From a virus: a stretch of 64,000 bases of DNA. The position numbers and the translations under genes are program-made. Every line of letters starts with the position of its first letter. Position 1 is the first letter of the stretch. The stretch is from positions 1 to 64,000 of IMG/VR virus record IMGVR_UViG_3300014501_000015; one strand, given 5' to 3'. This document shows, piece after piece, positions 1,553 to 23,542 of this stretch. The notes under the pieces were generated by a model. It did not search any database. It saw only the letters and a list, made by a program, of their open reading frames with translations, and was not told the origin of the DNA.

Positions 1553-1887
1553 AGGTCGGCTCGCTCTGTACGGGGATTCTCGGGGCAGAGCTCGCCCTGG
1601 AGATGATGGGCATGGACCCCGACCTCCGGTGGTACTCGGAGATCGACAAGGACGCCTGCAAGATCCTCGCTGAACGGGTACCGGGTGTTCCCAACCTCGG
1701 CGATCTCAAACTCATCGAGTGGGAACGGGTCGGACCTCAGGACGGCGCTGACGTGTCTCTGATCCCTACACCAACCGCCTGGCTCGGTCGACGGCCCAGT
1801 CAAGGTGACGGCGACGCGGCCCGGTGGGAGAACCCTGAGCGATCGCGTGAGTTGTCCGATTTCGTCGCATGGATGGAACGAGCGTGA
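1549..1887 (+). CDS. Truncated C5-cytosine methyltransferase remnant
   Basis: The first 55 residues match the start of a Dcm/C5 methyltransferase: a motif I loop (SLCTGILGAELALE) followed by a motif II/III-like stretch (YSEIDKDACKIL, then NLGDL). The expected PCQ catalytic motif IV and the whole central region are absent. The sequence jumps directly to a tail (LIPTPTAWLG and onward) that looks like the C-terminal end of phage cytosine methylases. At 112 aa it is about a third of the normal length and should lack catalysis. The simplest reading is an in-frame internal deletion. A complete C5 enzyme is present at 14977-15717. GTG start overlapping the previous stop. Confidence 0.65.
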   Translation: MKVGSLCTGILGAELALEMMGMDPDLRWYSEIDKDACKILAERVPGVPNLGDLKLIEWERVGPQDGADVSLIPTPTAWLGRRPSQGDGDAARWENPERSRELSDFVAWMERA

Positions 1888-2058
1888 AATATTGCTGGTG
1901 GTGCCGCCCGCCGGGAGTTACCGGCCTGGAGACTCCACGAGAGCGCGGGCTCTGTGACGGGTGCCGCGAGCTACTCGCCGACTTCAAAGACTGGCTGAAC
2001 AACCCGGCCCGACGCCGGACAGATAGTGGGCTAGACTCGGGCCGACAAGGAGAATTAC
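1884..2058 (+). other. Zinc-finger-like ORF start with no stop of its own
   Basis: A GTG at 1884 overlaps the preceding stop and opens a frame encoding a Cys-rich start (MKYCWWCRPPG, then LCDGCRELL) typical of small phage zinc-binding proteins. After about 50 codons the composition becomes arginine-rich and shadow-like, and the frame stays open until 2564, running under the better-supported gene at 2059. Stops exist in both other frames near 2024-2034. A one-base indel may therefore have removed the natural terminus. Confidence 0.35.
2009..2037 (+). promoter_or_regulatory. Candidate promoter for the gene at 2059
   Basis: CCGACG (2009-2014) and TAGACT (2032-2037) are 17 bp apart, and the spacer contains GGACAGATAG. 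The same spacer words occur in the promoter at 12316-12342, which suggests a shared phage promoter or operator pattern. A strong AAGGAG ribosome-binding site follows at 2047. Confidence 0.4.
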
Positions 2059-2382
2059 ATGACCGAGAATCGCGCCGAACCACCCGAAGGCTCCGAACCG
2101 GATGGACCGGGGTTCGGCAAGCCGTGGGTGCCGCGTCCCGGCGTGACCTTCCTCGCAAAGGGAGCCGTGGTGCGCTCAGCGCTGGACCTGACCAAAGGAC
2201 GCGTCGACGGCATCGTCGCCATGGACGTGCTGGGAAAATGGAATCACGCCGCTGCAGATACCCTCTCGATTATCTGCCACCCCGGCGTCGCCCGAGAGTG
2301 GGGCCAGTACTTGATCGAAGCAGCCGACGCGGCCGATGCCGATGGACGACTGATGCAAGGCCACCGACCGGAGACATCGTGA
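2059..2382 (+). CDS. Hypothetical protein, 107 aa
   Basis: Starts with ATG after a strong AAGGAG site and its own candidate promoter. The N-terminus is proline- and acid-rich. The body (about 35-95) looks like a small globular domain containing an alternating hydrophobic stretch around GIVAMDVLGKWNHAAADTLS. No recognised family. Its stop overlaps the next GTG start. Confidence 0.55.
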   Translation: MTENRAEPPEGSEPDGPGFGKPWVPRPGVTFLAKGAVVRSALDLTKGRVDGIVAMDVLGKWNHAAADTLSIICHPGVAREWGQYLIEAADAADADGRLMQGHRPETS

Positions 2383-2564
2383 TCGTCAACGGCATCGAGC
2401 AGACGGTCAACTGCCCGAACTGCGGCCCGGTCGTCCATCAGCGGGACAACGGTGATGACTGGCGACATTGCCCTTGCTGGGAAACCTTTGACGACGAGTT
2501 TGGCGCGGGATGGCGTGACGAATGCACGTGCGAGTGTCACGAACGGAGCGATGCAAATGGGTAA
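2379..2564 (+). CDS. Small cysteine-rich protein of the CGPVVHQ type
   Basis: 61-aa protein with a zinc-binding look: CPNCGPVVHQ near residues 11-20, then HCPC and a C-terminal CTCECHE. The same order of motifs (CxxCGPVVHQ ... HCxC ... CxCxCHE) is found in the minus-strand gene at 11102-11305, so these are paralogues within one phage. GTG start overlaps the preceding stop by 4 nt; the 3' end overlaps the DUF5131 gene. Confidence 0.6.
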   Translation: MIVNGIEQTVNCPNCGPVVHQRDNGDDWRHCPCWETFDDEFGAGWRDECTCECHERSDANG

Positions 2565-3540
2565 GACGAGCATAGAGTGGTCGACCCACGTCTGGAATCC
2601 GACTACTGGCTGTGACCGGGTGTCGCCCGGCTGCGACCACTGCTACGCCATGACCCTTGCCAAGCGCCTGAAGGCGATGGGGTCGCCGGGCTACCAGAAC
2701 GACGGAGACCCGCGCACCAGCGGGCCAGGGTTCGCGCTGACGTTGCACCCCGACCGACTCGATCAGCCGCTCCGGTGGACTAAGCCGCGGCGGATATTCG
2801 TCAACTCCATGTCGGACCTGTTCCATGTGGATGTCCCCGACGTGTTCCGGTTGGACATCTGGCAGGTCATGGCCGCCGCGCCGCAGCACGTCTATCAGAT
2901 CCTCACGAAACGACCTCAAGCCATGGCGCGGTTCTGCCGTCGGCTGAGTTGGGTGATGCCGCCCGAAACGAACGTGACAACGGGCGAGCCCTATCTGGGC
3001 GAGGACCCAATCACATGCACTCGTTTCCGGGGACGGGTGCTCGACGCCTGCGAGGAACCGCTGGACCAAGTTTGGTTAGGCACCAGCATCGAGAGCGACC
3101 GCTACACCTTCCGAGCCGACCACCTTCGGGCCACCCCGGCGGCAGTCCGGTTTCTGTCTCTTGAGCCGCTGCTCGGCCCGCTCCCTTCGCTCGACCTAAC
3201 CGGCATCGATTGGGTAATCGTGGGTGGAGAGAGCGGACAGGGAGCACGGCCCATGCACCCGCAGTGGGCGCGGGACATTCGGGACCGGTGCAACGCGGCC
3301 GGTGTTGCCTTCCTGTTCAAACAGAACGGCGCGTGGGTGAATCGAAACGACGGCCCGCCCTCACCAGGCGAAGCGATCTGGATGCACACAGACGGCCGCA
3401 CCGGGACCAACTGGAGCGCCCCCAGTACCGAGCCCGGGTGGGAGGCAATGTTCCGAATGGGCAAACACCAGGCGGGCCGACTGCTCGACGGCCGCACCTG
3501 GGATGAATACCCGGGCGAGCGCCACGAGGGCGACCGATGA
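2557..3540 (+). CDS. DUF5131 (phage Gp37/Gp68) radical-SAM-like protein
   Basis: The 327-aa protein opens with the family signature (KTSIEWSTHVWNPTTGC) and three cysteines spaced C-x5-C-x2-C (C19, C25, C28), as expected for an iron-sulphur site. Downstream blocks IFVNSMSDLFH, LTKRPQAMARF, VWLGTSIES, FLSLEPLLG and WVIVGGESG are all characteristic. Exact chemistry is not established. Its position among DNA-modification genes makes a role in nucleic-acid modification plausible, but that is inference. ATG 2557 is preferred over 2551 because GGAG at 2545 is then 8 nt upstream. Confidence 0.85.
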   Translation: MGKTSIEWSTHVWNPTTGCDRVSPGCDHCYAMTLAKRLKAMGSPGYQNDGDPRTSGPGFALTLHPDRLDQPLRWTKPRRIFVNSMSDLFHVDVPDVFRLDIWQVMAAAPQHVYQILTKRPQAMARFCRRLSWVMPPETNVTTGEPYLGEDPITCTRFRGRVLDACEEPLDQVWLGTSIESDRYTFRADHLRATPAAVRFLSLEPLLGPLPSLDLTGIDWVIVGGESGQGARPMHPQWARDIRDRCNAAGVAFLFKQNGAWVNRNDGPPSPGEAIWMHTDGRTGTNWSAPSTEPGWEAMFRMGKHQAGRLLDGRTWDEYPGERHEGDR

Positions 3541-6369: not shown

Positions 6370-7265
6370 CCGGCGATGAGTCGGGCGAAGGTTGGAATCT
6401 CATGCTCGGCGACTCCTGCGAGCGGCTGGCCGAGATTGAGGACGAGTCGATCGACCTGTCCATCTACTCGCCGCCATTCGCCAGCCTGTACGTCTACAGC
6501 CCAAGCGACCGCGACCTCGGTAACAACTCCACCCGCGACGGATTCATCGAGCACTACGGGTTCATCCTTCGGGAGATGTATCGGGTGACCAAGCCGGGCC
6601 GTCTGTCTTGCGTTCACGTCCAACAGATCACCACCACCAAGGTGCAGCACGGGATGATGAGCCTGACCGACTTCCGGGGCCAGGTAATCCAAGCCCACCA
6701 GGATGCCGGGTGGATATTCCACGGCGAGACCACCGTGGACAAGGACCCGCAGATGCAGGCGATCCGGACCAAGACGGCCAGCCTTCTATTCGTCCAGCTC
6801 TACCGGGACTCCACCGTCTCGCGGCCAGCATTGACCGACTACGTGCTGATGTTCCGTAAGCCAGGGGAGAACGCCGTCCCGGTCGTACCCGATATCGACC
6901 AAAAGACGTGGATCCAGTGGGCGCACGGCGTCTGGTACGACATTCGGGAGACGGCCACGCTCAACACGGTCACGGCCAAAGAGGACGCGGACGAGCGCCA
7001 CATCGTCCCATTGCAACTCCCGCTGATTGAGCGGTGCGTTCGGTTGTGGTCGAACCCCGGCGAGTTGATCCTGTCCCCGTTCGCCGGCATCGGCTCCGAG
7101 GGGTACGTGTCCCTGCTCCACAACCGGCGGTTTGTCGGGTGCGAATTGAAGCCGTCCTATTGGTCGACGGCTGTGACGAACCTCAAGCGCGCCGAGGCCG
7201 AGATGGCACTCCCCTCGCTATTCGATGAGGCCGCGGCATCGGTAGCATCATCGACGCCGACATGA
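6345..7265 (+). CDS. Site-specific DNA methyltransferase (N4/N6 amino type)
   Basis: 306 aa. Motif IV is SPPF (about residue 45), a form favoured by N4-cytosine enzymes. The SAM-binding motif I lies near the C-terminus (LSPFAGIGSEG, about 245), followed by FVGCELKPSYW. The order IV-then-I is that of beta-class enzymes. It is likely to protect phage DNA from restriction or change its expression. ATG start within the helicase 3' end. Confidence 0.85.
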   Translation: MPDDFDYVTGDESGEGWNLMLGDSCERLAEIEDESIDLSIYSPPFASLYVYSPSDRDLGNNSTRDGFIEHYGFILREMYRVTKPGRLSCVHVQQITTTKVQHGMMSLTDFRGQVIQAHQDAGWIFHGETTVDKDPQMQAIRTKTASLLFVQLYRDSTVSRPALTDYVLMFRKPGENAVPVVPDIDQKTWIQWAHGVWYDIRETATLNTVTAKEDADERHIVPLQLPLIERCVRLWSNPGELILSPFAGIGSEGYVSLLHNRRFVGCELKPSYWSTAVTNLKRAEAEMALPSLFDEAAASVASSTPT

Positions 7266-7744
7266 TTGAACTCAACGTCGTCGGGACGCCATTCCCTCAG
7301 GGATCAAAGTCGGCATTCATCCGCGGCGGTCGAGCTATCGTCACCGAGGGAGCTAGCAAGACCGGGCGCGCCGGACACGCGGCATGGAGACAATCAGTTG
7401 CAACGGCCACGCGGGACTACCTCGGCGAGCACCCGCGCCCGGCGATTGACGAACCCATCTTCGTGGCGATGCATTTCCGTTTCGCACTTACCTCCGATCG
7501 GTACAGATCGCGCCACCGTTCCCGCCCGGATTTGAGCAAGCTGATCCGCGCTACCGAAGACGCGATGGTCGACGGAGGACTCCTGAAGGATGACTCGTGC
7601 ATCTTCGCGATGTCGGCGTCGAAGGTCTACGCCCACGACGAACCTCCCGGCTGTCGAATTGGAATCGAGTTGTGTGGCGACGCCGAGGCTGCCGACCGGG
7701 AGATTCTCAAAGCTCAAGCCAAGCGCCGACGGGCGACGGGATAG
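7262..7744 (+). CDS. rusA: RusA-family Holliday junction resolvase
   Basis: 160 aa. Family landmarks are visible in order: GTPFPQGSKSAF near the N-terminus, RSRPDLSKLIRATEDAM with the catalytic aspartates, and LLKDDSCIF followed by a conserved lysine (SASKVYA). RusA proteins are dimeric endonucleases that cut four-way DNA junctions before packaging. ATGA overlap with the methyltransferase. It closes the first early operon, since a hairpin and a leader follow. Confidence 0.85.
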   Translation: MIELNVVGTPFPQGSKSAFIRGGRAIVTEGASKTGRAGHAAWRQSVATATRDYLGEHPRPAIDEPIFVAMHFRFALTSDRYRSRHRSRPDLSKLIRATEDAMVDGGLLKDDSCIFAMSASKVYAHDEPPGCRIGIELCGDAEAADREILKAQAKRRRATG

Positions 7745-13105: not shown

Positions 13106-13434
13106 CCGAGCCGATCACCGACGAAGAACTGCACGGGTATCGAGACCGCATTGACGCACAGATGGAGTTCTACGGCCACCTGCGGGGTCAGGACGAAGTG
13201 AACGCTCGGTTCATTGCTCGCATCGACAGCAGAGAGTCGGTACTGCGTGAGATTCGGAAGGCAGGCCACCACTGGTGCCGGTGGGGTCATGGGCCGGAAC
13301 ATGACCTGGATACACGCCGAGGAGATGGATTGTGCTCCTGCGGGAAGGTTCAACGGGACGCCGCCATCGACCGAGTGTTGGGAGAGCCAGAGTACAGCGA
13401 CAAATATCCGTTTCGGCAGGAGGATGTTCAGTGA
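13102..13434 (+). CDS. Hypothetical protein with Cys/His cluster, 110 aa
   Basis: Acidic helical N-terminus (ITDEELHGYRDRIDAQMEFY), then HHWCRWGHG and GLCSCGK, a possible zinc site. ATGA overlap upstream and GTGA overlap downstream. Confidence 0.55.
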   Translation: MTEPITDEELHGYRDRIDAQMEFYGHLRGQDEVNARFIARIDSRESVLREIRKAGHHWCRWGHGPEHDLDTRRGDGLCSCGKVQRDAAIDRVLGEPEYSDKYPFRQEDVQ

Positions 13435-13631
13435 GTGACCAACCGACCCCGACGTGCGCTCCCCGCCCGTGGAGTCTGCCGATGCCCGGTAGTCAGTTCG
13501 GTGACCGTGCCCGTTGCGTCTGCGGGCGGGAGTACGTCGTCCGTCACGGAGACGGGATGTTGACCCCGCCGCGCCCCTATTGGAAGCCCCGTCGTCGTCT
13601 ACACATTCGGAGGTATCGCAGCCATGAGTGA
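13431..13631 (+). CDS. Small basic Cys protein starting MSDQPTP
   Basis: 66 aa with CVCGREYVVRHGDG, a zinc-ribbon-like half site. GTG start follows GGAGGA. The first 21 nt after the start base (13432-13452) are repeated exactly at 13625-13645, the start of the next gene. Confidence 0.5.
   Translation: MSDQPTPTCAPRPWSLPMPGSQFGDRARCVCGREYVVRHGDGMLTPPRPYWKPRRRLHIRRYRSHE
13432..13452 (+). repeat. 21-bp start-spanning direct repeat, copy 1
   Basis: Identical to 13625-13645. Each copy spans a start codon and encodes SDQPTP, giving two adjacent genes the same N-terminus. Confidence 0.7.
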
Positions 13632-13794
13632 CCAACCGACCCCGAGCCCGGCTTGTGCAACTTGCGGGAACCTCCACCGATACGACTGGTGTCCCTGCCG
13701 ACCAGAGAACTACCGGGGTGTCCCAGTAGTGACCGACCCCGAAGTTCCGCCAGGGGACATCTACCTAACCGATCAATCCCCGGAGGCGTCGTGA
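13624..13794 (+). CDS. Small Cys-rich protein starting MSDQPTP, 56 aa
   Basis: Contains CATCGNLHRYDWCPC (C-x2-C ... C-x-C), a likely zinc-binding unit, and an acidic proline-rich tail. Shares its first seven residues and the underlying DNA with the preceding gene. Confidence 0.5.
   Translation: MSDQPTPSPACATCGNLHRYDWCPCRPENYRGVPVVTDPEVPPGDIYLTDQSPEAS
13625..13645 (+). repeat. 21-bp start-spanning direct repeat, copy 2
   Basis: Exact second copy of 13432-13452, beginning at base 2 of the ATG at 13624. Confidence 0.7.
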
Positions 13795-14188: not shown

Positions 14189-14604
14189 AGTTCTGCCCTG
14201 ACCACTGGGATCGACTGCGCAAGGCCATCGCCCTACGGAAGCTCGACTCGCTGATCGCTGAGGATGGCCAGAAAGCCCTGAGCAACCTCTTGTCGGAGAT
14301 GAACGAGGGATCGAGCTTTGACAACTTCGATCCGCTCATGGGCGCTCACAACGCCATCTGGTCCCAAGCCATGTCGATCATTAAAGACCGGTACACGCAG
14401 AACCCGCTGATGCTGATGGCCGACGATGCCGAGCATCCAGAGTGGGCGTGCCCCATCTGTGCCCTCAACTGGTGCCACGACGAGCACACCAGGCTCTGCA
14501 CCCAGGAAGGGTGCGACTGGCCGAAGTCCTACGACTGGACCGACGAGATGGTGACCGGTGCCGCCGACCACATGCTCGCCACTTGGAAGGAAATGCAGTT
14601 ATGA
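14185..14604 (+). CDS. Conserved phage zinc-binding protein, 139 aa
   Basis: Begins MKFCPDHWDRLRKAI and contains the block NFDPLMGAHNAIW, a combination recurrent in actinophage and proteobacterial phage hypotheticals, followed by CPICALNWCHDEH and a second cysteine pair. Likely structural zinc. Function unknown. ATGA overlap upstream. Confidence 0.6.
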   Translation: MKFCPDHWDRLRKAIALRKLDSLIAEDGQKALSNLLSEMNEGSSFDNFDPLMGAHNAIWSQAMSIIKDRYTQNPLMLMADDAEHPEWACPICALNWCHDEHTRLCTQEGCDWPKSYDWTDEMVTGAADHMLATWKEMQL

Positions 14605-14628
14605 CCACCCCCATCTCCCCCGAAGACC
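14601..14628 (+). repeat. 28-bp start-spanning direct repeat, copy 1
   Basis: Identical to 16337-16364. Begins exactly at an ATG and encodes MTTPISPED in both genes. Confidence 0.75.
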
Positions 14629-14984
14629 AGACAGAGGGGGAAGTGACAACGACCATGCTGTGCGAATGCGGTCACCCCGCGCATGACCATGATGAGAAGG
14701 GCACACTCTGCCTATCCTGCGACAAATGCGGCGGGTTCACTGATTACGAACCGGACTGGATCGGCAGGTTGCAGGTTCTGGCCGGGGAAGCGAGATTCAG
14801 AACAGCGAACGGGGGTCCGGTTGGCGAGGAGTTTTCCGACACCTTCTCTCCTTCAACGGTGGCCGCAATGCTGAACGTGGTGAGGGCGGCCGACACCTTC
14901 GACTACGACGAATGGGGGATCATCGGGGATGACCAACTGTCGGCGACCGTCGGCGCACTTGAGAATCTGGTATGTGATGAGTAG
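14601..14984 (+). CDS. Cys-rich hypothetical protein starting MTTPISPED, 127 aa
   Basis: After the shared N-terminus it has a compact zinc-binding region (CECGHPAHDHDEKGTLC ... CDKC) and a C-terminal helical domain (VAAMLNVVRAADTFDY). Overlaps the C5 methyltransferase start by 8 nt. Confidence 0.55.
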   Translation: MTTPISPEDQTEGEVTTTMLCECGHPAHDHDEKGTLCLSCDKCGGFTDYEPDWIGRLQVLAGEARFRTANGGPVGEEFSDTFSPSTVAAMLNVVRAADTFDYDEWGIIGDDQLSATVGALENLVCDE

Positions 14985-15717
14985 GCCCCGACTCCTCGAT
15001 CTGTTCTGCGGTGCTGGTGGGGCGGCGATGGGCTATCACCGCGCCGGGTTCGAGGTGGTGGGGGTGGACATCGAGCCGCAGCCGAACTACCCGTTCGAGT
15101 TCCACCAGTGCGACGCCATCTCCACGCTAAACAGGCTGGACCTGTTCGCTGCGGTGACTGATTCTGGCGAGCCCTTCGATGCCATCCACGCCAGCCCGCC
15201 GTGCCAGGGCTACTCCCGTATGCGGCATCTTCCGTGGTTGAAAGACCGGGAATACCCGATGCTAATTGAGCCGGTACGAGAACTCCTGCTCGCTACGGGG
15301 CTGCCCTACGTCATCGAGAACGTCATGGACTCCCCACTGATCGAGCCGTTCATGCTCTGCGGGCTGGACTTTGGGCTCCGCATGTACCGGCACCGTCTGT
15401 TCGAGGCCAACTTCATGGTGATGGTTCATCCCCACCAGCGCCACACTGTGACCATCGGGTCGGGTCGGATGCTGGGATCTCGCTACTCGAAGGGGTCCGC
15501 TGGCGTCACCGGCATTCTCCCTGACCCTGCGGGCCACACGGCGGGAGCGAGCACGAACGCCGCCAAGGCGGTCATGGGCGTCGAGTGGATGACCCGCGAC
15601 GAGATGACCCAGGCCATCCCCCCCGCCTACACCGAGTTCATAGGCTCTCAGTTGTTGCAGTATTTGTCGGTCGCTGCCCTCGCTGCTCCCCCTGACCCGG
15701 AGGAGCCGAGCGAATGA
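14977..15717 (+). CDS. dcm: C5-cytosine DNA methyltransferase
   Basis: 246 aa and apparently complete. Motif I LLDLFCGAGGAAMGY, motif II VVGVDIEP, catalytic motif IV SPPCQGYS with the nucleophilic cysteine, motif VI IENV, motif VIII MYRHRLFEA, and a C-terminal motif IX/X region with AIPPAYTEFIGSQLL. It transfers a methyl group to C5 of cytosine, protecting phage DNA from restriction. ATG 14977 chosen because the motif I strand begins six residues later. Confidence 0.9.
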   Translation: MSRPRLLDLFCGAGGAAMGYHRAGFEVVGVDIEPQPNYPFEFHQCDAISTLNRLDLFAAVTDSGEPFDAIHASPPCQGYSRMRHLPWLKDREYPMLIEPVRELLLATGLPYVIENVMDSPLIEPFMLCGLDFGLRMYRHRLFEANFMVMVHPHQRHTVTIGSGRMLGSRYSKGSAGVTGILPDPAGHTAGASTNAAKAVMGVEWMTRDEMTQAIPPAYTEFIGSQLLQYLSVAALAAPPDPEEPSE

Positions 15718-15758
15718 GCATCTACCCGCCTGGCCGATACCGAAGGAGCGACGAATGA
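15714..15758 (+). CDS. Tiny coupled ORF, 14 aa
   Basis: ATGA-coupled reading MSIYPPGRYRRSDE, largely encoded by the 32-bp repeat in an alternative frame. Possibly only a translational bridge. Confidence 0.2.
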   Translation: MSIYPPGRYRRSDE

Positions 15759-15760
15759 GT
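15729..15760 (+). repeat. 32-bp start-associated repeat, copy 1
   Basis: Carries GAAGGAG and the ATG (15755) of the next gene. Identical in all 32 positions to 16063-16094 and 17121-17152. Confidence 0.85.
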
Positions 15761-16096
15761 GAAGGTGCCCCCCCCGACCCCGATGTCCCGGTCCTCCGAC
15801 TCCGCATAGCGGAGCTAGAAGCACAGGTAGAGCGGCTGCGAAACGACCATTTCTTCTCGCTTGAGGCGTCCGAGATTCGGGCGGCTGAGTTGGAGAATGC
15901 GCTGGTCGAAATCGACACCTACCTCGCCAACGATCCAGACGTATGGCGAATCGTCAGTGTGTGCAAGGCGGGGGAAGTTCTCTGCGACGTACTCGGTCCC
16001 GAGACAATCGCTGCAATCAATGCGGGGGTGGAAGCGAACCTCTGCGCCAAGTGTTCAGACGCCCTGGCCGATACCGAAGGAGCGACGAATGAGTAG
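15755..16096 (+). CDS. Coiled-coil protein, 113 aa
   Basis: Residues 10-60 form a heptad-rich coiled coil (VLRLRIAELEAQVERLRND). The C-terminus has C-x2-C (LCAKCSDAL) and ends ALADTEGATNE, the residues encoded by repeat copy 2. The start lies inside repeat copy 1. Confidence 0.6.
   Translation: MSEGAPPDPDVPVLRLRIAELEAQVERLRNDHFFSLEASEIRAAELENALVEIDTYLANDPDVWRIVSVCKAGEVLCDVLGPETIAAINAGVEANLCAKCSDALADTEGATNE
16063..16094 (+). repeat. 32-bp start-associated repeat, copy 2
   Basis: Encodes the C-terminal residues of the coiled-coil protein and carries the ribosome-binding site and ATG (16089) of the next gene. Confidence 0.85.
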
Positions 16097-16340
16097 GTGG
16101 TGGCAGACAGAGCACTTCACTCTCGATGACGGGGCGATTGTCGATGTGAGGTGGTGGGATCGAGTCACCACCCACCGACGTATCTCGCCCATCGTCCTCT
16201 GGTGGTACTACAACGTGCTCCGATATCCCAAGCCGCCACCGTTTGCCAAAGATCGGATCGCCCAGCACTTTGGGTTCGTTGACGGCATCCCGGCGTGCAA
16301 GGGGCCGATCTGTGAGGCCCACGAATGGAAGGTGCCATGA
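16089..16340 (+). CDS. Hypothetical Trp-rich protein, 83 aa
   Basis: Sequence MSRWWQTEHFTLDDGAIVDV followed by a tryptophan/tyrosine-rich middle (IVLWWYYNVLRYP) that could be a membrane-associated segment. The start is inside repeat copy 2. No family. Confidence 0.5.
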   Translation: MSRWWQTEHFTLDDGAIVDVRWWDRVTTHRRISPIVLWWYYNVLRYPKPPPFAKDRIAQHFGFVDGIPACKGPICEAHEWKVP

Positions 16341-16364
16341 CCACCCCCATCTCCCCCGAAGACC
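16337..16364 (+). repeat. 28-bp start-spanning direct repeat, copy 2
   Basis: Exact copy of 14601-14628, beginning at the ATG of the following gene. Confidence 0.75.
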
Positions 16365-16600
16365 TGGAGGCAACTGTGCCCGAACACGAAACAGACGTAA
16401 CGGTAGGCCGGTTCATGGTGTTTGACATCGGCTGTCTGGAATGCGGTGAGCCATCGGACATCGTTGGGTTCTTCACCACCACAGATGAGGCGGTTCTTCG
16501 GGCCACAGACGCCGAAAAGGAACAAAAGGAAGACTGGCACGGCCAACACGCTTTCGTCATCTTCGACCTCTCGGACGGGAGCAGGGTGGATTATGACTGA
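16337..16600 (+). CDS. Hypothetical protein starting MTTPISPED, 87 aa
   Basis: Shares its first nine residues with the protein at 14601 but is otherwise different (VTVGRFMVFDIGCLECGEPS). CxxC pair present. ATG 16337 has GGAAGG upstream and is preferred to ATG 16325. Confidence 0.5.
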   Translation: MTTPISPEDLEATVPEHETDVTVGRFMVFDIGCLECGEPSDIVGFFTTTDEAVLRATDAEKEQKEDWHGQHAFVIFDLSDGSRVDYD

Positions 16601-16637
16601 TTCAATCAAGCGCAACGTGATCCCGGTGAAGTCGTGA
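16593..16637 (+). CDS. Tiny coupled ORF, 14 aa
   Basis: Encodes MTDSIKRNVIPVKS between overlapping genes and ends in a GTGA overlap with the XF1762 gene. Comparable in position and length to the 14-aa ORF at 13791. Confidence 0.25.
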   Translation: MTDSIKRNVIPVKS

Positions 16638-17080
16638 GCCTTCATCTCGTGCCCGTTGATTTCCCCACCGCGAGCGGGTTCGTGGCGGAATGGCACCGCC
16701 ACCATCGCCCTCCCGTGGGTCACAAGTTCTCCCTCGGCGTGGCTGACGAGGAAGGCGTGCTCCGAGGCGTAGCGATGGTCGGTCGTCCAGTAGCTCGGCA
16801 CTACGCCGATGGGCTGACGCTGGAAGTCAACCGCACGGCGACGGATGGCACGCCAAATGCCAACTCAATGCTCTACGGAGCCGCCTGGCGGGCAACAAAG
16901 GCGCTCGGCTACTCGCGGCTCATCACATACACCCAGGCGGGAGAATCCGGTTCATCCTTACGGGCAGCTGGCTGGATCGTGCTGGCCGAACTCCAAGCCC
17001 GGAGAGGGTGGGACACGCCGAGCCGCCGACGTGACGCACATGGGGTCGATGCGATCCCCCGCACGCTGTGGGAGGCGTAG
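16634..17080 (+). CDS. XF1762-family (Mom-like GNAT) protein
   Basis: 148 aa. Family blocks are all present: EWHRHHRPPVGHKFSLGVAD, GVAMVGRPVARHYADG, LEVNRTATDGTPNANSMLYG, LITYTQAGESGSSLRAAGW. These proteins share the acyltransferase-like fold proposed for phage Mu Mom, which modifies adenines. With the ParB-like and ATPase-acyltransferase genes at 8.5-10.2 kb it completes a plausible Mom-type set. GTG start. Confidence 0.8.
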   Translation: MSLHLVPVDFPTASGFVAEWHRHHRPPVGHKFSLGVADEEGVLRGVAMVGRPVARHYADGLTLEVNRTATDGTPNANSMLYGAAWRATKALGYSRLITYTQAGESGSSLRAAGWIVLAELQARRGWDTPSRRRDAHGVDAIPRTLWEA

Positions 17081-17154
17081 TGAGCGATGACGGGATGGAT
17101 AAGTGTGCCGACTGCGGCCACCTGGCCGATACCGAAGGAGCGACGAATGAGTAA
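17080..17154 (+). CDS. Small Cys protein, 24 aa
   Basis: GTG start overlapping the preceding TAG; encodes MSDDGMDKCADCGHLADTEG and three more residues before NE. A CxxCGH zinc half-site is followed by residues specified by repeat copy 3. Its C-terminus is identical to that of the coiled-coil protein ending at 16096. Confidence 0.4.
   Translation: MSDDGMDKCADCGHLADTEGATNE
17121..17152 (+). repeat. 32-bp start-associated repeat, copy 3
   Basis: Third identical copy; carries the ribosome-binding site and ATG (17147) of the pentapeptide-repeat gene. Confidence 0.85.
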
Positions 17155-17929
17155 GCCACTGGTTACCATGACCGTTCACACGATTGACGAGGCCCTATCC
17201 AAGTTCGACCTGGTATCCGGTGTGGGGTCCGAGGCAGACGGTAAGGCGTGCGCCATGACCCTGCTGGCGTGGATGGCAGGCAAGCCGTGGACCGATCGCC
17301 CCGACTGCGCCCACCCGATCATCGCCGACGGCGTGATCCGGGCCAACGATGCCCCCGACACCACGCCCACCATGCGCGAGGAACTGGTCCGAGCGGGACA
17401 GACCGGCATCCTCGACACTTGGTGGATACCCGGTGTGGTCATCGCCTGGGCACTGTCGGGCGAGCGGGGCAAGGAGCCACCGAGCCAGTACGAGCGGGCG
17501 CTAACGGCGGTCAAGCGGCTTGGAGAGTGGAAAGTGGACAAGCCGCGTCCCGACCTCCGGGGTGCCAACCTCGGGAGTGCCAACCTCGGGAGTGCCGACC
17601 TCGGGAGTGCCGACCTCGGGAGTGCCAACCTCCGGGGTGCCGACCTCCGGAGTGCCAACCTCCGGAGTGCCAACCTCGCGGGTGCCAACCTCGCGGGTGC
17701 CAACCTCGGGGGTGCCAACCTCCGGGGTGCCAACCTCCGGGGTGCCAACCTCGGGGGTGCCGACCTCGGGGGTGCCGACCTCGGGAGTGCCGACCTCGGG
17801 AGTGCCAACCTCGCGGGTGCCGACCTCCGGAGTGCCAACCTCCTGGGTGCCTACGCGAACAGCTATACGATCTTCCCCGAAGGCGCACCCTGGACGGTCC
17901 CCGAGTCGGGCCTGGTGGTGCCGAAGTGA
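17147..17929 (+). CDS. Pentapeptide-repeat protein
   Basis: 260 aa. Residues 1-135 form a mixed alpha/beta N-terminal domain found on phage pentapeptide proteins (FDLVSGVGSEADGKACAM ...). Residues 136-235 are 20 consecutive A(D/N)LxG/S quintets, predicted to form a right-handed quadrilateral beta-helix, and a short aromatic tail follows. Qnr/MfpA-type members mimic DNA and bind gyrase; whether this one does is unknown. The start lies within repeat copy 3. Confidence 0.8.
   Translation: MSKPLVTMTVHTIDEALSKFDLVSGVGSEADGKACAMTLLAWMAGKPWTDRPDCAHPIIADGVIRANDAPDTTPTMREELVRAGQTGILDTWWIPGVVIAWALSGERGKEPPSQYERALTAVKRLGEWKVDKPRPDLRGANLGSANLGSADLGSADLGSANLRGADLRSANLRSANLAGANLAGANLGGANLRGANLRGANLGGADLGGADLGSADLGSANLAGADLRSANLLGAYANSYTIFPEGAPWTVPESGLVVPK
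17552..17851 (+). repeat. Minisatellite of twenty 15-bp units
   Basis: Twenty units of the form (G/A)ACCTCxGGxGTGCC encode the pentapeptides. Variation is almost confined to a few codon positions per unit. The near-identity at silent positions indicates recent unit duplication or conversion rather than old divergence. Confidence 0.9.
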
Positions 17930-20694: not shown

Positions 20695-20828
20695 CCCCTG
20701 ACCGACCACCGACTCTCTCCGAGGCAATGGATGAGTGTCGGCAAGCCTTCCGGGACTTCTGGCACCTGTGGCAAGAGAAGGTAACGCGGCCCATCTTCGA
20801 CATCGTTGTGCGGCGGCGGGTGCGGTGA
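20691..20828 (+). CDS. Hypothetical protein, 45 aa
   Basis: GTG start coupled to the membrane miniprotein and to TerL. Helical, aromatic-rich (AFRDFWHLWQEKVTRPIFDI). No family. Confidence 0.4.
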   Translation: MTPDRPPTLSEAMDECRQAFRDFWHLWQEKVTRPIFDIVVRRRVR

Positions 20829-23542
20829 CCGCCACCCTCGGCTTCGACCCGTCCTCGCTCCTCGGCCTAGAGCGTCCCGAATTCGACAGGGCATGGAAGA
20901 AGCTCTCACCGAAGGTGCGCGCGGCCTGGTGGCTGTGGTTCGAGGAGGAGCACTCCACGCCCTGGCGCGCCACCCCTTCGACGATGAGTTGCCACCTGGC
21001 GCCGGGGCTTTGGAAGCCCTACAAGTATTGGATGCTGCTCGGCCAGAAATTCAGGGACGCGGTAACTGGGGTATCACCTCGTCAGCTCTGGGCTGTGCCC
21101 CCACGTCTTGGTAAGAGCAGCCTGGCGAGTCGTTGGGGTCCGGCATGGAGCCTCGACCGAGATCCGACCCAGAAGATCATCCTCGTGTCCTACGGCGATG
21201 ACCTGGCCGACGAGAACGCCCGGTCTGTGCGGGACATCCTGGTCGAGCATTCATCCGTTCTCCGAGCCCAACTCCGGCCCGACGTGAAGCGGCGCGACAG
21301 GTTCATGACCGAGCAGGGCGGCGGCATTGTCGGGGCGGGTATCGGGTCAGCGCTGACAGGATTCGGAGCCACGGGAGTTTGCCTGGATGACCCCTTCAAA
21401 AGCTGGGTAGAGGCTCATAGCGAGGCACAACGAGATCGTGTCGACTTCGCCTATAGGGCGGTGGTGCGAACCAGGCTGGAGGACGACAACCCCTGGCAAA
21501 TTCTGCCAGCCACGAGATGGCATGAAGATGATTTGACCGGACGCCTGCTCGACCGGATGCAGGACGGCACAGGCGAAGAATGGGAGTTGGTCCGCATCCC
21601 CGCCATAGCTGAGCGGTACGACCCCGAGAGCATTGACCCGTGGACCCGCATGCGCGATCCACTAGGGCGCGCCGAGGGCGAGGTCATCGAACCGGAGAAG
21701 TTCTCAATCGAGTTCGAGCGCGAGCGTGCCCGCAGCCTCGGGTCTTTCCTCTCCGCCGCACTCCTCCAGCAACGGCCGGCGCCCGCCGAGGGGGGGGAGT
21801 TCAAGAGGTCATGGTGGCAGATCGAATCGACGATGCCCGAGAAATACCAGCAGATGCTCTCATCGTGGGACATGAAACTGAAGGAACGGGACTCGGGAGA
21901 CTTCACCGTCGGTCAGGTGTGGGGTCGTATCGGGAAGGACTGCTGGTTGGTCGATCAGTTCCGGGGCCGATGGACCCAAGCAACTACTGCCTGTGCGATG
22001 GCACTGGTCACCGTTCGCCACCCGGAGTGCCGACGTCACCTGGTCGAATCCGCCGGGTATGGGCCAGAGGTGATGCAAGCCCTGCGCACCGCCTCACCGG
22101 GTTACGTGGTCAGCGATGACATCGCCGCTCAACTCGGGATGACCACGGACGAACGGGACGCGGTGAGTCGCATTCGTAGCCGAGGATTGGCAGGTCTCAT
22201 CCCCGTCACGCCCAAGGGATCCAAGGTCGTGCGAGCGCGCGCCATCATTCCTTACGTGGAAGCCGGCGACGTTCATTTGCCCTCCCGTGCTCCATGGCTC
22301 CCCGAGTTCCTCGAAGAGTTGTCTGCGTTCCCACAGGGCAATCACGACGACATGTGCCTTCCCGCTGGGACTCAGATCGTTATGCCAGACGGCCCGGTGT
22401 CTATCGAAGCGGTAACTCCCGGTGATCAAGTGCTTGGCGCTTCCGGTTGGGTGACTGTCGAAGATGCGGGGCAGACGGGGATATCGCCGGTACTCGATCA
22501 GTTTGGTTTGCGTGCTACGGCCAAGCATCCGTTCGCTACGGATCGGGGGTGGATTCCTTTCCGTGAGTTACGCCACGATGATATGCTGTGGACGTGCGAT
22601 GTAAGTACCCAGGATGTGACCGAGAAGCGGTGGCGAAGGGTTTATGCCATCGATGCTGGAAGCGTCGTGCGACTGGTGCCACGCCACGAAACACCCCACG
22701 CCAGTGCCGGGTGTTTGGTTGCAGCAGGGGCGGGAAGATCACCCGCGGGTATTGCCAACTTCACTATTCCCGGTTCCGTCGTCATGGCGACCCCCTCATT
22801 GTCAAAGCCACTGAGCGCGGGAGTGTCCGAGTCGAGTCTGTCGAGTTCGGTGGCATCACGTACCGGCGCTATCCCGACTCTGCCCAGGTGGCCCACCGCC
22901 GGTACTACAAGCCTGGCGGTCAATGGATCAAGCAAGGGGTCCAGGCGCTTCACCAAGAGGTATGGAAAGCGAGCAACGGGCCGATCCCCAAGGGCTGGCA
23001 CGTCCATCATCGGAACGAAGATTTCAGCGACAATCGGCCAGAGAATCTGGAATGTCTTCCACGGGGTAAGCACGAGGACAAGCATTCTGCTCAGCGTTCT
23101 GCGACCGGACGATCTCCGAAGCATCTCGCCCTCCTTGCGCGCATCAGGCCGCTCACCGTGGCGTGGCACCAGTCGCCCGAAGGCAGAGAATGGCACCGGG
23201 AACATGCCCAGATTGTTGGAGCGGCTATCCGCGAGCGGACCACTCATTGCCCACAGAATCACGAATACACCGAGGAGAACACACGGTGGAGTAAGACTGG
23301 CGGTCGCCAATGCAAGGAATGCCACCGTATACGAGAGCGTGAGTCATACCACCGACGCAAGCGAGCCCGTATTCAACCTGAGAACAAGTGATGGCACATA
23401 CTTCGCTGATGGAGTACTCGTCCACAACTGCGACACGTTGAGCCAGGCCCTCGCGAAGATCCACAACTTGGGGGTCCACAAAACCCGCACCTTTGGCGAA
23501 GAGATGCGAGCCACCACAACCGGCAGTCGGATGGCAGGATGA
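20825..23542 (+). CDS. terL: Large terminase subunit precursor interrupted by an intein
   Basis: 905 aa precursor. The ATPase domain has VPPRLGKSS (Walker A, about residue 92), GVCLDDP (Walker B) and PATRWHEDDLTGRLL, typical of the psiM2 ORF9-like TerL group. The nuclease domain has SSWDMKLKERDSGD, LVESAGYGPEVMQAL and NHDDM/CDTLSQAL. The last motif is split by an intein (residues 511-868); without it TerL would be 547 aa, a normal size. TerL translocates DNA into the prohead and cuts it. Intein insertion at the nuclease active-site motif should make packaging depend on splicing. GTG start overlaps the previous stop. Confidence 0.9.
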   Translation: MTATLGFDPSSLLGLERPEFDRAWKKLSPKVRAAWWLWFEEEHSTPWRATPSTMSCHLAPGLWKPYKYWMLLGQKFRDAVTGVSPRQLWAVPPRLGKSSLASRWGPAWSLDRDPTQKIILVSYGDDLADENARSVRDILVEHSSVLRAQLRPDVKRRDRFMTEQGGGIVGAGIGSALTGFGATGVCLDDPFKSWVEAHSEAQRDRVDFAYRAVVRTRLEDDNPWQILPATRWHEDDLTGRLLDRMQDGTGEEWELVRIPAIAERYDPESIDPWTRMRDPLGRAEGEVIEPEKFSIEFERERARSLGSFLSAALLQQRPAPAEGGEFKRSWWQIESTMPEKYQQMLSSWDMKLKERDSGDFTVGQVWGRIGKDCWLVDQFRGRWTQATTACAMALVTVRHPECRRHLVESAGYGPEVMQALRTASPGYVVSDDIAAQLGMTTDERDAVSRIRSRGLAGLIPVTPKGSKVVRARAIIPYVEAGDVHLPSRAPWLPEFLEELSAFPQGNHDDMCLPAGTQIVMPDGPVSIEAVTPGDQVLGASGWVTVEDAGQTGISPVLDQFGLRATAKHPFATDRGWIPFRELRHDDMLWTCDVSTQDVTEKRWRRVYAIDAGSVVRLVPRHETPHASAGCLVAAGAGRSPAGIANFTIPGSVVMATPSLSKPLSAGVSESSLSSSVASRTGAIPTLPRWPTAGTTSLAVNGSSKGSRRFTKRYGKRATGRSPRAGTSIIGTKISATIGQRIWNVFHGVSTRTSILLSVLRPDDLRSISPSLRASGRSPWRGTSRPKAENGTGNMPRLLERLSASGPLIAHRITNTPRRTHGGVRLAVANARNATVYESVSHTTDASEPVFNLRTSDGTYFADGVLVHNCDTLSQALAKIHNLGVHKTRTFGEEMRATTTGSRMAG
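22355..23428 (+). other. Intein within TerL (358 residues)
   Basis: Begins with Cys1 (CLPAGTQIVMPDGPVSIEAV, block A), has a block B (ATAKHPFAT ... GWIPFRELRHDD) and ends with block F/G (VFNLRTSDGTYFADGVLVHN) followed by extein Cys+1. All splicing residues (Cys1, block B His, terminal His-Asn, Cys+1) are present. Between the splicing halves the TerL frame is low-complexity filler, because that DNA encodes an HNH protein in another frame. Confidence 0.88.
22588..23391 (+). CDS. HNH homing endonuclease nested out of frame in the TerL intein
   Basis: 267 aa from GTG 22588, in the -1 frame relative to TerL. Two zinc fingers (CKYPGCDREAVAKGLCHRC and CRVFGCSRGGKITRGYCQLH), an HNH core (HVHHRNEDFSDNRPENLECL) and a C-terminal Cys/His unit (CPQNHEY ... 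CKECHR). This is the architecture of free-standing phage HNH homing enzymes. The gene is intact with its own stop, and its 3' end overlaps codons of intein block F. No clear Shine-Dalgarno was found, so expression may be low or coupled. Confidence 0.85.
   Translation: MDVRCKYPGCDREAVAKGLCHRCWKRRATGATPRNTPRQCRVFGCSRGGKITRGYCQLHYSRFRRHGDPLIVKATERGSVRVESVEFGGITYRRYPDSAQVAHRRYYKPGGQWIKQGVQALHQEVWKASNGPIPKGWHVHHRNEDFSDNRPENLECLPRGKHEDKHSAQRSATGRSPKHLALLARIRPLTVAWHQSPEGREWHREHAQIVGAAIRERTTHCPQNHEYTEENTRWSKTGGRQCKECHRIRERESYHRRKRARIQPENK

What the first reader, a model, noticed from the sequence alone, without database searches (positions are those of the whole stretch)
15729..17152. Three identical 32-bp start-associated repeats in one gene cluster
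Positions 15729-15760, 16063-16094 and 17121-17152 are identical and each contains the Shine-Dalgarno and the first bases of a different gene. The repeat also encodes the C-termini of two upstream proteins (both end LADTEGATNE). Unrelated genes follow each copy. This is reminiscent of the start-associated sequences described in cluster K mycobacteriophages, but it is longer and includes coding sequence. It could be a recombination seam that lets small genes be swapped with expression signals.
Basis: partly seen in the sequence, partly recalled or inferred. Interest (0 to 1): 0.75.

Follow-up and report, generated by a model that had tools for sequence, protein, structure and literature searches.

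The report
Repeated gene junctions for swapping genes
A bacterial virus carries the same 32-base stretch three times, each time exactly where one small gene ends and the next begins; by analogy with well-sampled mycobacterial viruses, where such junctions demonstrably join different neighbours, it is most likely a shared seam at which single genes can be added, lost or exchanged without losing their translation signal.

Summary
Confirmed: CCTGGCCGATACCGAAGGAGCGACGAATGAGT occurs three times exactly (15729, 16063, 17121), each carrying a Shine-Dalgarno and the start of a different gene; nothing like it arises by chance. Two more start repeats lie nearby: 28 bp at 14601/16337 and 21 bp at 13432/13625. 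All seven copies sit on overlapping stop/start junctions, and the genes after them are unrelated. No other record searched has the 32-mer, so recombination cannot be tested on it directly; the principle can be tested elsewhere. L073, a relative, has three consecutive genes opening with another private repeat, which recurs in an otherwise dissimilar contig (L170). Mycobacteriophages share a 37-bp junction repeat of the same anatomy (472 phage records); 14 contexts show four upstream and at least four downstream genes in reassorted pairs, with identity stopping inside the repeat. The window phage encodes RecT, YqaJ exonuclease and a RusA-like protein; its two longer repeats reach the published minimum for Red-beta pairing (23-27 bp). 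Best reading: gene-boundary recombination seams, several bounding a single gene. A role in translation, as proposed for Start-Associated Sequences, is not excluded and may coexist; the canonical SAS motif is absent. New variant of a known kind.

The parts
15729..15760 (+). junction repeat R, copy 1: SD AAGGAG + ATGAGT; starts gene A (15755)
   Evidence: exact 32-mer; longest in-register run among gene starts
16063..16095 (+). junction repeat R, copy 2: codes the end LADTEGATNE of gene A and starts gene B (16089); 8-bp gene overlap
17121..17153 (+). junction repeat R, copy 3: codes the end LADTEGATNE of a 24-aa ORF (17080-17154) and starts gene C (17147)
15755..16096 (+). gene A, 113 aa, coiled-coil-like, no known family; exactly one gene between R copies 1 and 2
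   Evidence: no hit in Pfam, PHROGs or isolated phages:
16089..16340 (+). gene B, 83 aa, no known family
17080..17154 (+). 24-aa ORF MSDDGMDKCADCGHLADTEGATNE between the Mom-like gene and gene C
   Evidence: read from sequence; expression not tested
17147..17929 (+). gene C, pentapeptide-repeat protein, 260 aa
   Evidence: PF00805 E 1.5e-24
14601..14628 (+). 28-bp start repeat, copy 1, begins at ATG of gene 14601-14984 (MTTPISPED...)
16337..16364 (+). 28-bp start repeat, copy 2, begins at ATG of gene 16337-16600 (MTTPISPED...), unrelated after the repeat
13432..13452 (+). 21-bp start repeat, copy 1, from base 2 of GTG start of gene 13431-13631 (MSDQPTP...)
13625..13645 (+). 21-bp start repeat, copy 2, from base 2 of ATG start of gene 13624-13794 (MSDQPTP...)
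14980..15717 (+). cytosine-C5 DNA methyltransferase just upstream of R copy 1 (start codon uncertain)
   Evidence: PF00145 E 8.4e-8, phrog_363 E 4.1e-35
16634..17080 (+). Mom-like DNA modification protein between R copies 2 and 3
   Evidence: phrog_1384 E 1.9e-39; PF25680 below its cut-off
7262..7744 (+). RusA-like Holliday junction resolvase of the same phage (RecT and YqaJ lie at record positions 67558-68874 and 66615-67553, beyond the window)

Best explanation
The repeats are gene-boundary recombination seams. Each is a short stretch of DNA lying on the overlapping stop/start junction of two small genes; in the 32-mer it spans the last codons of the gene before, the Shine-Dalgarno and the first codons of the gene after. 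Because several junctions share it, recombination by short homology (probably annealing by the phage's RecT after resection by YqaJ, or by host enzymes) can join a new gene to the seam, or remove the gene between two seams, while keeping reading frames and the translation signal. In five cases here and in related or unrelated phages the segment between two copies is one whole gene, i.e. a one-gene cassette. Shown: the repeats, their exact placement, unrelated genes behind them, a RecT/YqaJ pair in this phage, and reassortment at an equivalent seam in mycobacteriophages. Inferred: that exchange has happened, or happens, at these particular copies, and that RecT does it.
For: Seven copies of three repeat families, all on overlapping stop/start junctions; bodies of the following genes unrelated (permutation p 0.08 to 0.84). 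Same architecture elsewhere, each with its own sequence: L073 (three consecutive genes), L098, L021, L014; one whole gene between copies in L073 (twice), L021, L098 and window 13431-13631 and 15755-16096. L073's repeat is also in contig L170, which shares only two short stretches with L073 by blastn: one at the repeat and one of 50 bp elsewhere; a different gene lies upstream. Mycobacteriophage 37-bp seam in 472 records; 14 contexts reassort upstream and downstream genes; Phoebus vs ShiLan: 0 mismatches in the seam, downstream 99% over 300 bp, upstream 20-40% by 20-bp bins; Zeeculate vs BobaPhett copy 1: upstream 98%, downstream unrelated. 4 of 36 interspersed repeat families have both copies at starts against 0.09 expected; without the window phage 2 of 32 against 0.085. 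RecT E 1.3e-45 and YqaJ E 9e-27. Published minimal pairing length 23-27 bp for Red-beta, 31-34 bp for RecA (PMC3945230).
Against: No second genome carries the 32-mer or the 28-mer, so no exchange at these copies is documented. The 21-bp repeat is below the published minimum. RecT was found in only 2 of 10 records tested, some of them fragments, and in none of the four mycobacteriophages with the seam, so RecT is not the general agent. In mycobacteriophages the seam is better conserved than the genes beside it (0-1 mismatch of 37 against 69-74% upstream), which also fits selection on the sequence as a signal.
Confidence: 0.66

Rival explanations
1. Regulatory or translation element in the manner of Start-Associated Sequences: the sequence is kept because it sets translation initiation, or binds a protein or RNA, at chosen genes.
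For: Each copy holds a good Shine-Dalgarno and start; all 32 bases are identical. The mycobacteriophage seam is better conserved than either neighbour. SAS-like motifs at starts are described in Cluster K (PMC3203893) and Microbacterium EF phages (PMC7302621).
Against: Only three copies, clustered within 1.4 kb; SAS motif absent beyond chance; no hairpin (z 0.47, 1.08, -0.45); no promoter-like site in the repeats. The other two families begin at or inside the start codon and hold no Shine-Dalgarno, so a translation signal does not explain them. Different phages use different sequences.
Confidence: 0.2
2. Remnant of tandem gene duplication: small genes were duplicated with their start regions and the bodies then diverged, the start or end peptide staying conserved.
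For: Copies lie close together; the proteins before copies 2 and 3 both have a CAxC motif before LADTEGATNE (CAKC and CADC), hinting at common origin of that end.
Against: No residual similarity of the gene bodies beside a perfectly identical 32-mer with sharp edges; at copy 1 the repeat is not read in the LADTEGATNE frame, so peptide conservation cannot hold it.
Confidence: 0.1
3. Assembly artefact: contigs of different phages joined at a short shared sequence.
For: The record is a metagenomic contig; short repeats are where misjoins occur.
Against: Three different repeat families with intact overlapping frames on both sides; the isolated phages BobaPhett and Cabrinians carry a two-copy junction repeat of the same kind.
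Confidence: 0.04

Closest known systems
Short conserved boundary sequences proposed as sites of phage mosaic exchange
   Same: Short shared DNA at gene boundaries, proposed to guide homologous recombination between otherwise unrelated phages (discussed in PMC3029335, which cites the original work)
   Different: Here the seam overlaps coding sequence on both sides and occurs several times in one genome, bounding single genes; [quoted passage not shown]
Start-Associated Sequences of cluster K mycobacteriophages (PMC3203893) and cluster EF Microbacterium phages (PMC7302621)
   Same: Repeated sequence at the Shine-Dalgarno and start of unrelated small genes in the non-structural region
   Different: SAS is a 13-bp motif upstream of the start, 11-19 copies, often with an upstream inverted repeat; here 21-33 bp, includes the start codon and coding bases, 2-3 copies, motif absent
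PeSL promoter/stem-loop cassettes of T4-type phages (mobile regulatory cassettes; from memory, the original paper is not held)
   Same: Repeated expression signals between small genes thought to mediate shuffling of genes by recombination
   Different: PeSLs are intergenic promoter plus stem-loop; here no promoter or hairpin was detected and the seam lies in gene overlaps
37-bp RWVSGWSEA|MSD junction of mycobacteriophages (found here; no published description met in the searches made)
   Same: End codons of the upstream gene + ATGA overlap + first codons of the next gene; two copies in BobaPhett and Cabrinians
   Different: Different sequence; shared by 472 phage records, whereas the window's repeat is so far private

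Membership tests
Start-Associated Sequence (cluster K type) | 13-bp motif GGGATAGGAGCCC | tested here: not met
   2 matches with 2 mismatches against 2.38 expected, neither at the repeats
Start-Associated Sequence (cluster K type) | Located a few bp (typically 3-7) before the start codon | tested here: not met
   Repeat spans -26 to +6 relative to ATG; the 28-mer begins at ATG. The TM4 control gave SAS copies ending at or just past the ATG
Start-Associated Sequence (cluster K type) | Many copies (11-19) over the right half of the genome | tested here: not met
   3 copies in the whole 69.7-kb record
Start-Associated Sequence (cluster K type) | Extended SAS: inverted repeat upstream (about half of sites) | tested here: inconclusive
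   RNA folds of the three sites not better than shuffles; a DNA inverted-repeat search confined to the sites was not run
Gene-boundary recombination seam | Identical sequence at boundaries of otherwise unrelated genes in one genome | tested here: met
Gene-boundary recombination seam | Gene content changes at the repeat between genomes | not testable with these tools
   No second genome with this 32-mer. Met for the mycobacteriophage seam and suggested for the L073/L170 repeat
Gene-boundary recombination seam | A recombination system able to use about 30 bp is present | tested here: met
   RecT and YqaJ domains, RusA-like; activity not tested

The most novel reading that the evidence does not exclude
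Stop/start overlap seams are a widespread way in which phages of one host community exchange single small genes: short coding-embedded sequences act as common joints, so that any gene ending and beginning with the joint can be inserted in frame with its translation signal.
Probability: 0.35. Interest if true: 0.8.

Novelty: new variant of a known kind. Interest (0 to 1): 0.6.

Why it matters
How phage genomes gain and lose their many small genes at gene boundaries is an old question; boundary homologies were proposed but reported as absent at most junctions. A joint placed inside overlapping genes is easily missed because it is short, coding and specific to one phage or one set of phages. The mycobacteriophage seam found here, in hundreds of sequenced phages with laboratory hosts, makes the idea directly testable.

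Tried and rejected
Exact and degenerate searches for the 32-mer in IMG/VR, isolated phages and genome contigs: nothing convincing. 28-mer in IMG/VR and a 40-bp stretch around it in phages: only a 17-bp match in haloviruses, taken as chance. Relatives through the Gp3-like protein and the intein-bearing terminase: none close. RNA hairpins and promoters in the repeat: none. SAS motif: absent. Homologues of genes A and B in phages: none. One search failed because I gave the 24-aa ORF one base off; its tblastn used the same wrong frame and is not used. My gene caller missed the starts at 13431, 13624 and L073:10278, so the enrichment count is a lower bound. The records scanned were those fetched by Mom-like and helicase queries, not a random sample. 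An earlier attempt to submit was incomplete and was not accepted.

Full report
Observation. The window is positions 1-64000 of a 69,709-base virus record. The 32-mer is present three times without mismatch and is not a product of composition. Each copy contains AAGGAG and an ATG six bases later. Copies 2 and 3 also encode the last ten residues, LADTEGATNE, of the preceding protein; copy 1 lies in a 14-codon ORF read in another frame, or is untranslated upstream of the start. Identity at copy 1 therefore cannot be explained by conservation of a peptide.

More of the same. Two further exact repeats in the same small-gene region also lie on gene starts: 28 bp (14601, 16337) beginning at the ATG, and 21 bp (13432, 13625) beginning at the second base of the start codon. 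All seven copies sit on overlapping stop/start junctions of 4 or 8 bp. In-register comparison of 94 starts gives these five pairs as outliers (33, 32, 32, 28, 21 against a next best of 15). The proteins behind each repeat have no detectable similarity to each other. Between two copies lies exactly one gene in two cases (13431-13631; 15755-16096).

Neighbours. Upstream of copy 1 is a cytosine methyltransferase; between copies 2 and 3 are gene B, an unknown gene opening with the 28-mer, and a Mom-like DNA modification protein; after copy 3 a pentapeptide-repeat protein and a Gp3-like protein. The phage encodes RecT and a YqaJ exonuclease next to each other near the end of the record, and a RusA-like protein.

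Elsewhere. No other record searched has the 32-mer. In 120 records (2.0 Mb) fetched through the Mom-like gene and the helicase, repeats of 20 bp or more with both copies on gene starts were 4 of 36 families against 0.09 expected; excluding the window phage, 2 of 32 against 0.085. This is a lower bound since the gene caller missed some starts, and the records are not a random sample. Inspection shows: L073, a relative (about 69% nucleotide identity over 2.1 kb at the helicase), with three consecutive genes all opening GTG/ATG-ACCCCTGACCGCGTAGC(C/T)GAGGC; L098, with a 28-bp repeat holding the end of the upstream gene, a Shine-Dalgarno and the next start; L021, a 20-bp repeat over KRAAA*/ATGAG; and L014, a 26-bp repeat of Shine-Dalgarno plus start. 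L073's repeat recurs once in L170; blastn between the two finds only this place and one other 50-bp stretch, and the upstream gene differs.

Direct evidence for a seam in mycobacteriophages. Cabrinians and BobaPhett carry twice a 37-bp repeat, CCCGCTGGGTGTCGGGATGGAGCGAGGCATGAGCGAC, again end codons (RWVSGWSEA*) plus overlapping start (MSD). It occurs in 472 phage records, including Cheoctovirus, Omegavirus, Kostyavirus, Fromanvirus and Benedictvirus phages. Fourteen contexts show at least four upstream genes (EEQWVPVEESG......GLTRETLPAREGW......GSGRLTGIES..., MMGHQPHYQDD...) joined in different pairings to at least four downstream genes (MSDADTARRNG..., MSDRFYVLDCD..., MSIEQLIAYS..., VMTWEWFTGF...). 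Family assignment rests on reading the translations; the automatic clustering of 300-bp flanks in that call chained some distinct groups together. Identity stops inside the repeat: Phoebus and ShiLan share the seam and everything downstream but not the upstream gene; Zeeculate and BobaPhett copy 1 share everything upstream and part of the seam but not the downstream gene. The seam is also better conserved than the genes beside it in some pairs (MinionDave vs Bluefalcon: 0 of 37 differ, upstream 74%), which can mean repeated homogenisation by exchange or selection on the sequence; these data do not separate the two.

Mechanism. Published minimal pairing lengths are 23-27 bp for Red-beta and 31-34 bp for RecA (PMC3945230). 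The 28- and 32-bp repeats lie in this range; the 21-bp one does not. I infer annealing by RecT in the window phage; L073's record also has a RecT match, but the four seam-bearing mycobacteriophages tested do not, so other recombinases must serve there. Excision between two copies would remove a gene and leave one intact seam; insertion would add one. This is inference for the window phage.

Relation to known kinds. Position and role resemble SAS, but the SAS motif, copy number and limits are not met (PMC3203893). The closest concept is the short conserved boundary sequence (discussed in PMC3029335); the variant here is a coding-embedded joint on a stop/start overlap, repeated in one genome. 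My literature searches found no description of the mycobacteriophage seam, but the library is partial and its absence there proves little.

Noticed in passing
record G000: 1-123 and 69587-69709: The record ends are an exact inverted repeat of 123 bp, unusual for a tailed phage with a terminase; it could be a real terminal inverted repeat or an assembly effect.
   Followed up: no
window 20825-23542: The terminase large subunit appears to contain an intein-like insertion (about C at DDM|C to HN|CDTLSQ), read from the sequence.
   Followed up: no
L073 record (G001) 1612-3117: The RecT match is split in two by about 1 kb within one long open frame, perhaps another intein.
   Followed up: no
L152: 19217-19898 (BobaPhett): The two copies of the mycobacteriophage 37-bp seam flank the mobile element MPME1 plus one gene.
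   Followed up: partly
window 17529-17870: Long array of 15-bp units coding a pentapeptide-repeat protein directly behind the third repeat.
   Followed up: no
window 14980-17080: A cytosine methyltransferase and a Mom-like modification gene lie among the small genes bounded by the repeats, suggesting counter-defence genes may be among the cargo.
   Followed up: partly
L155: 9553 and 21149 (Gordonia phage BrutonGaster): Two genes share their first 18 bases, ATGTCTGACCCATTCCAG.
   Followed up: no
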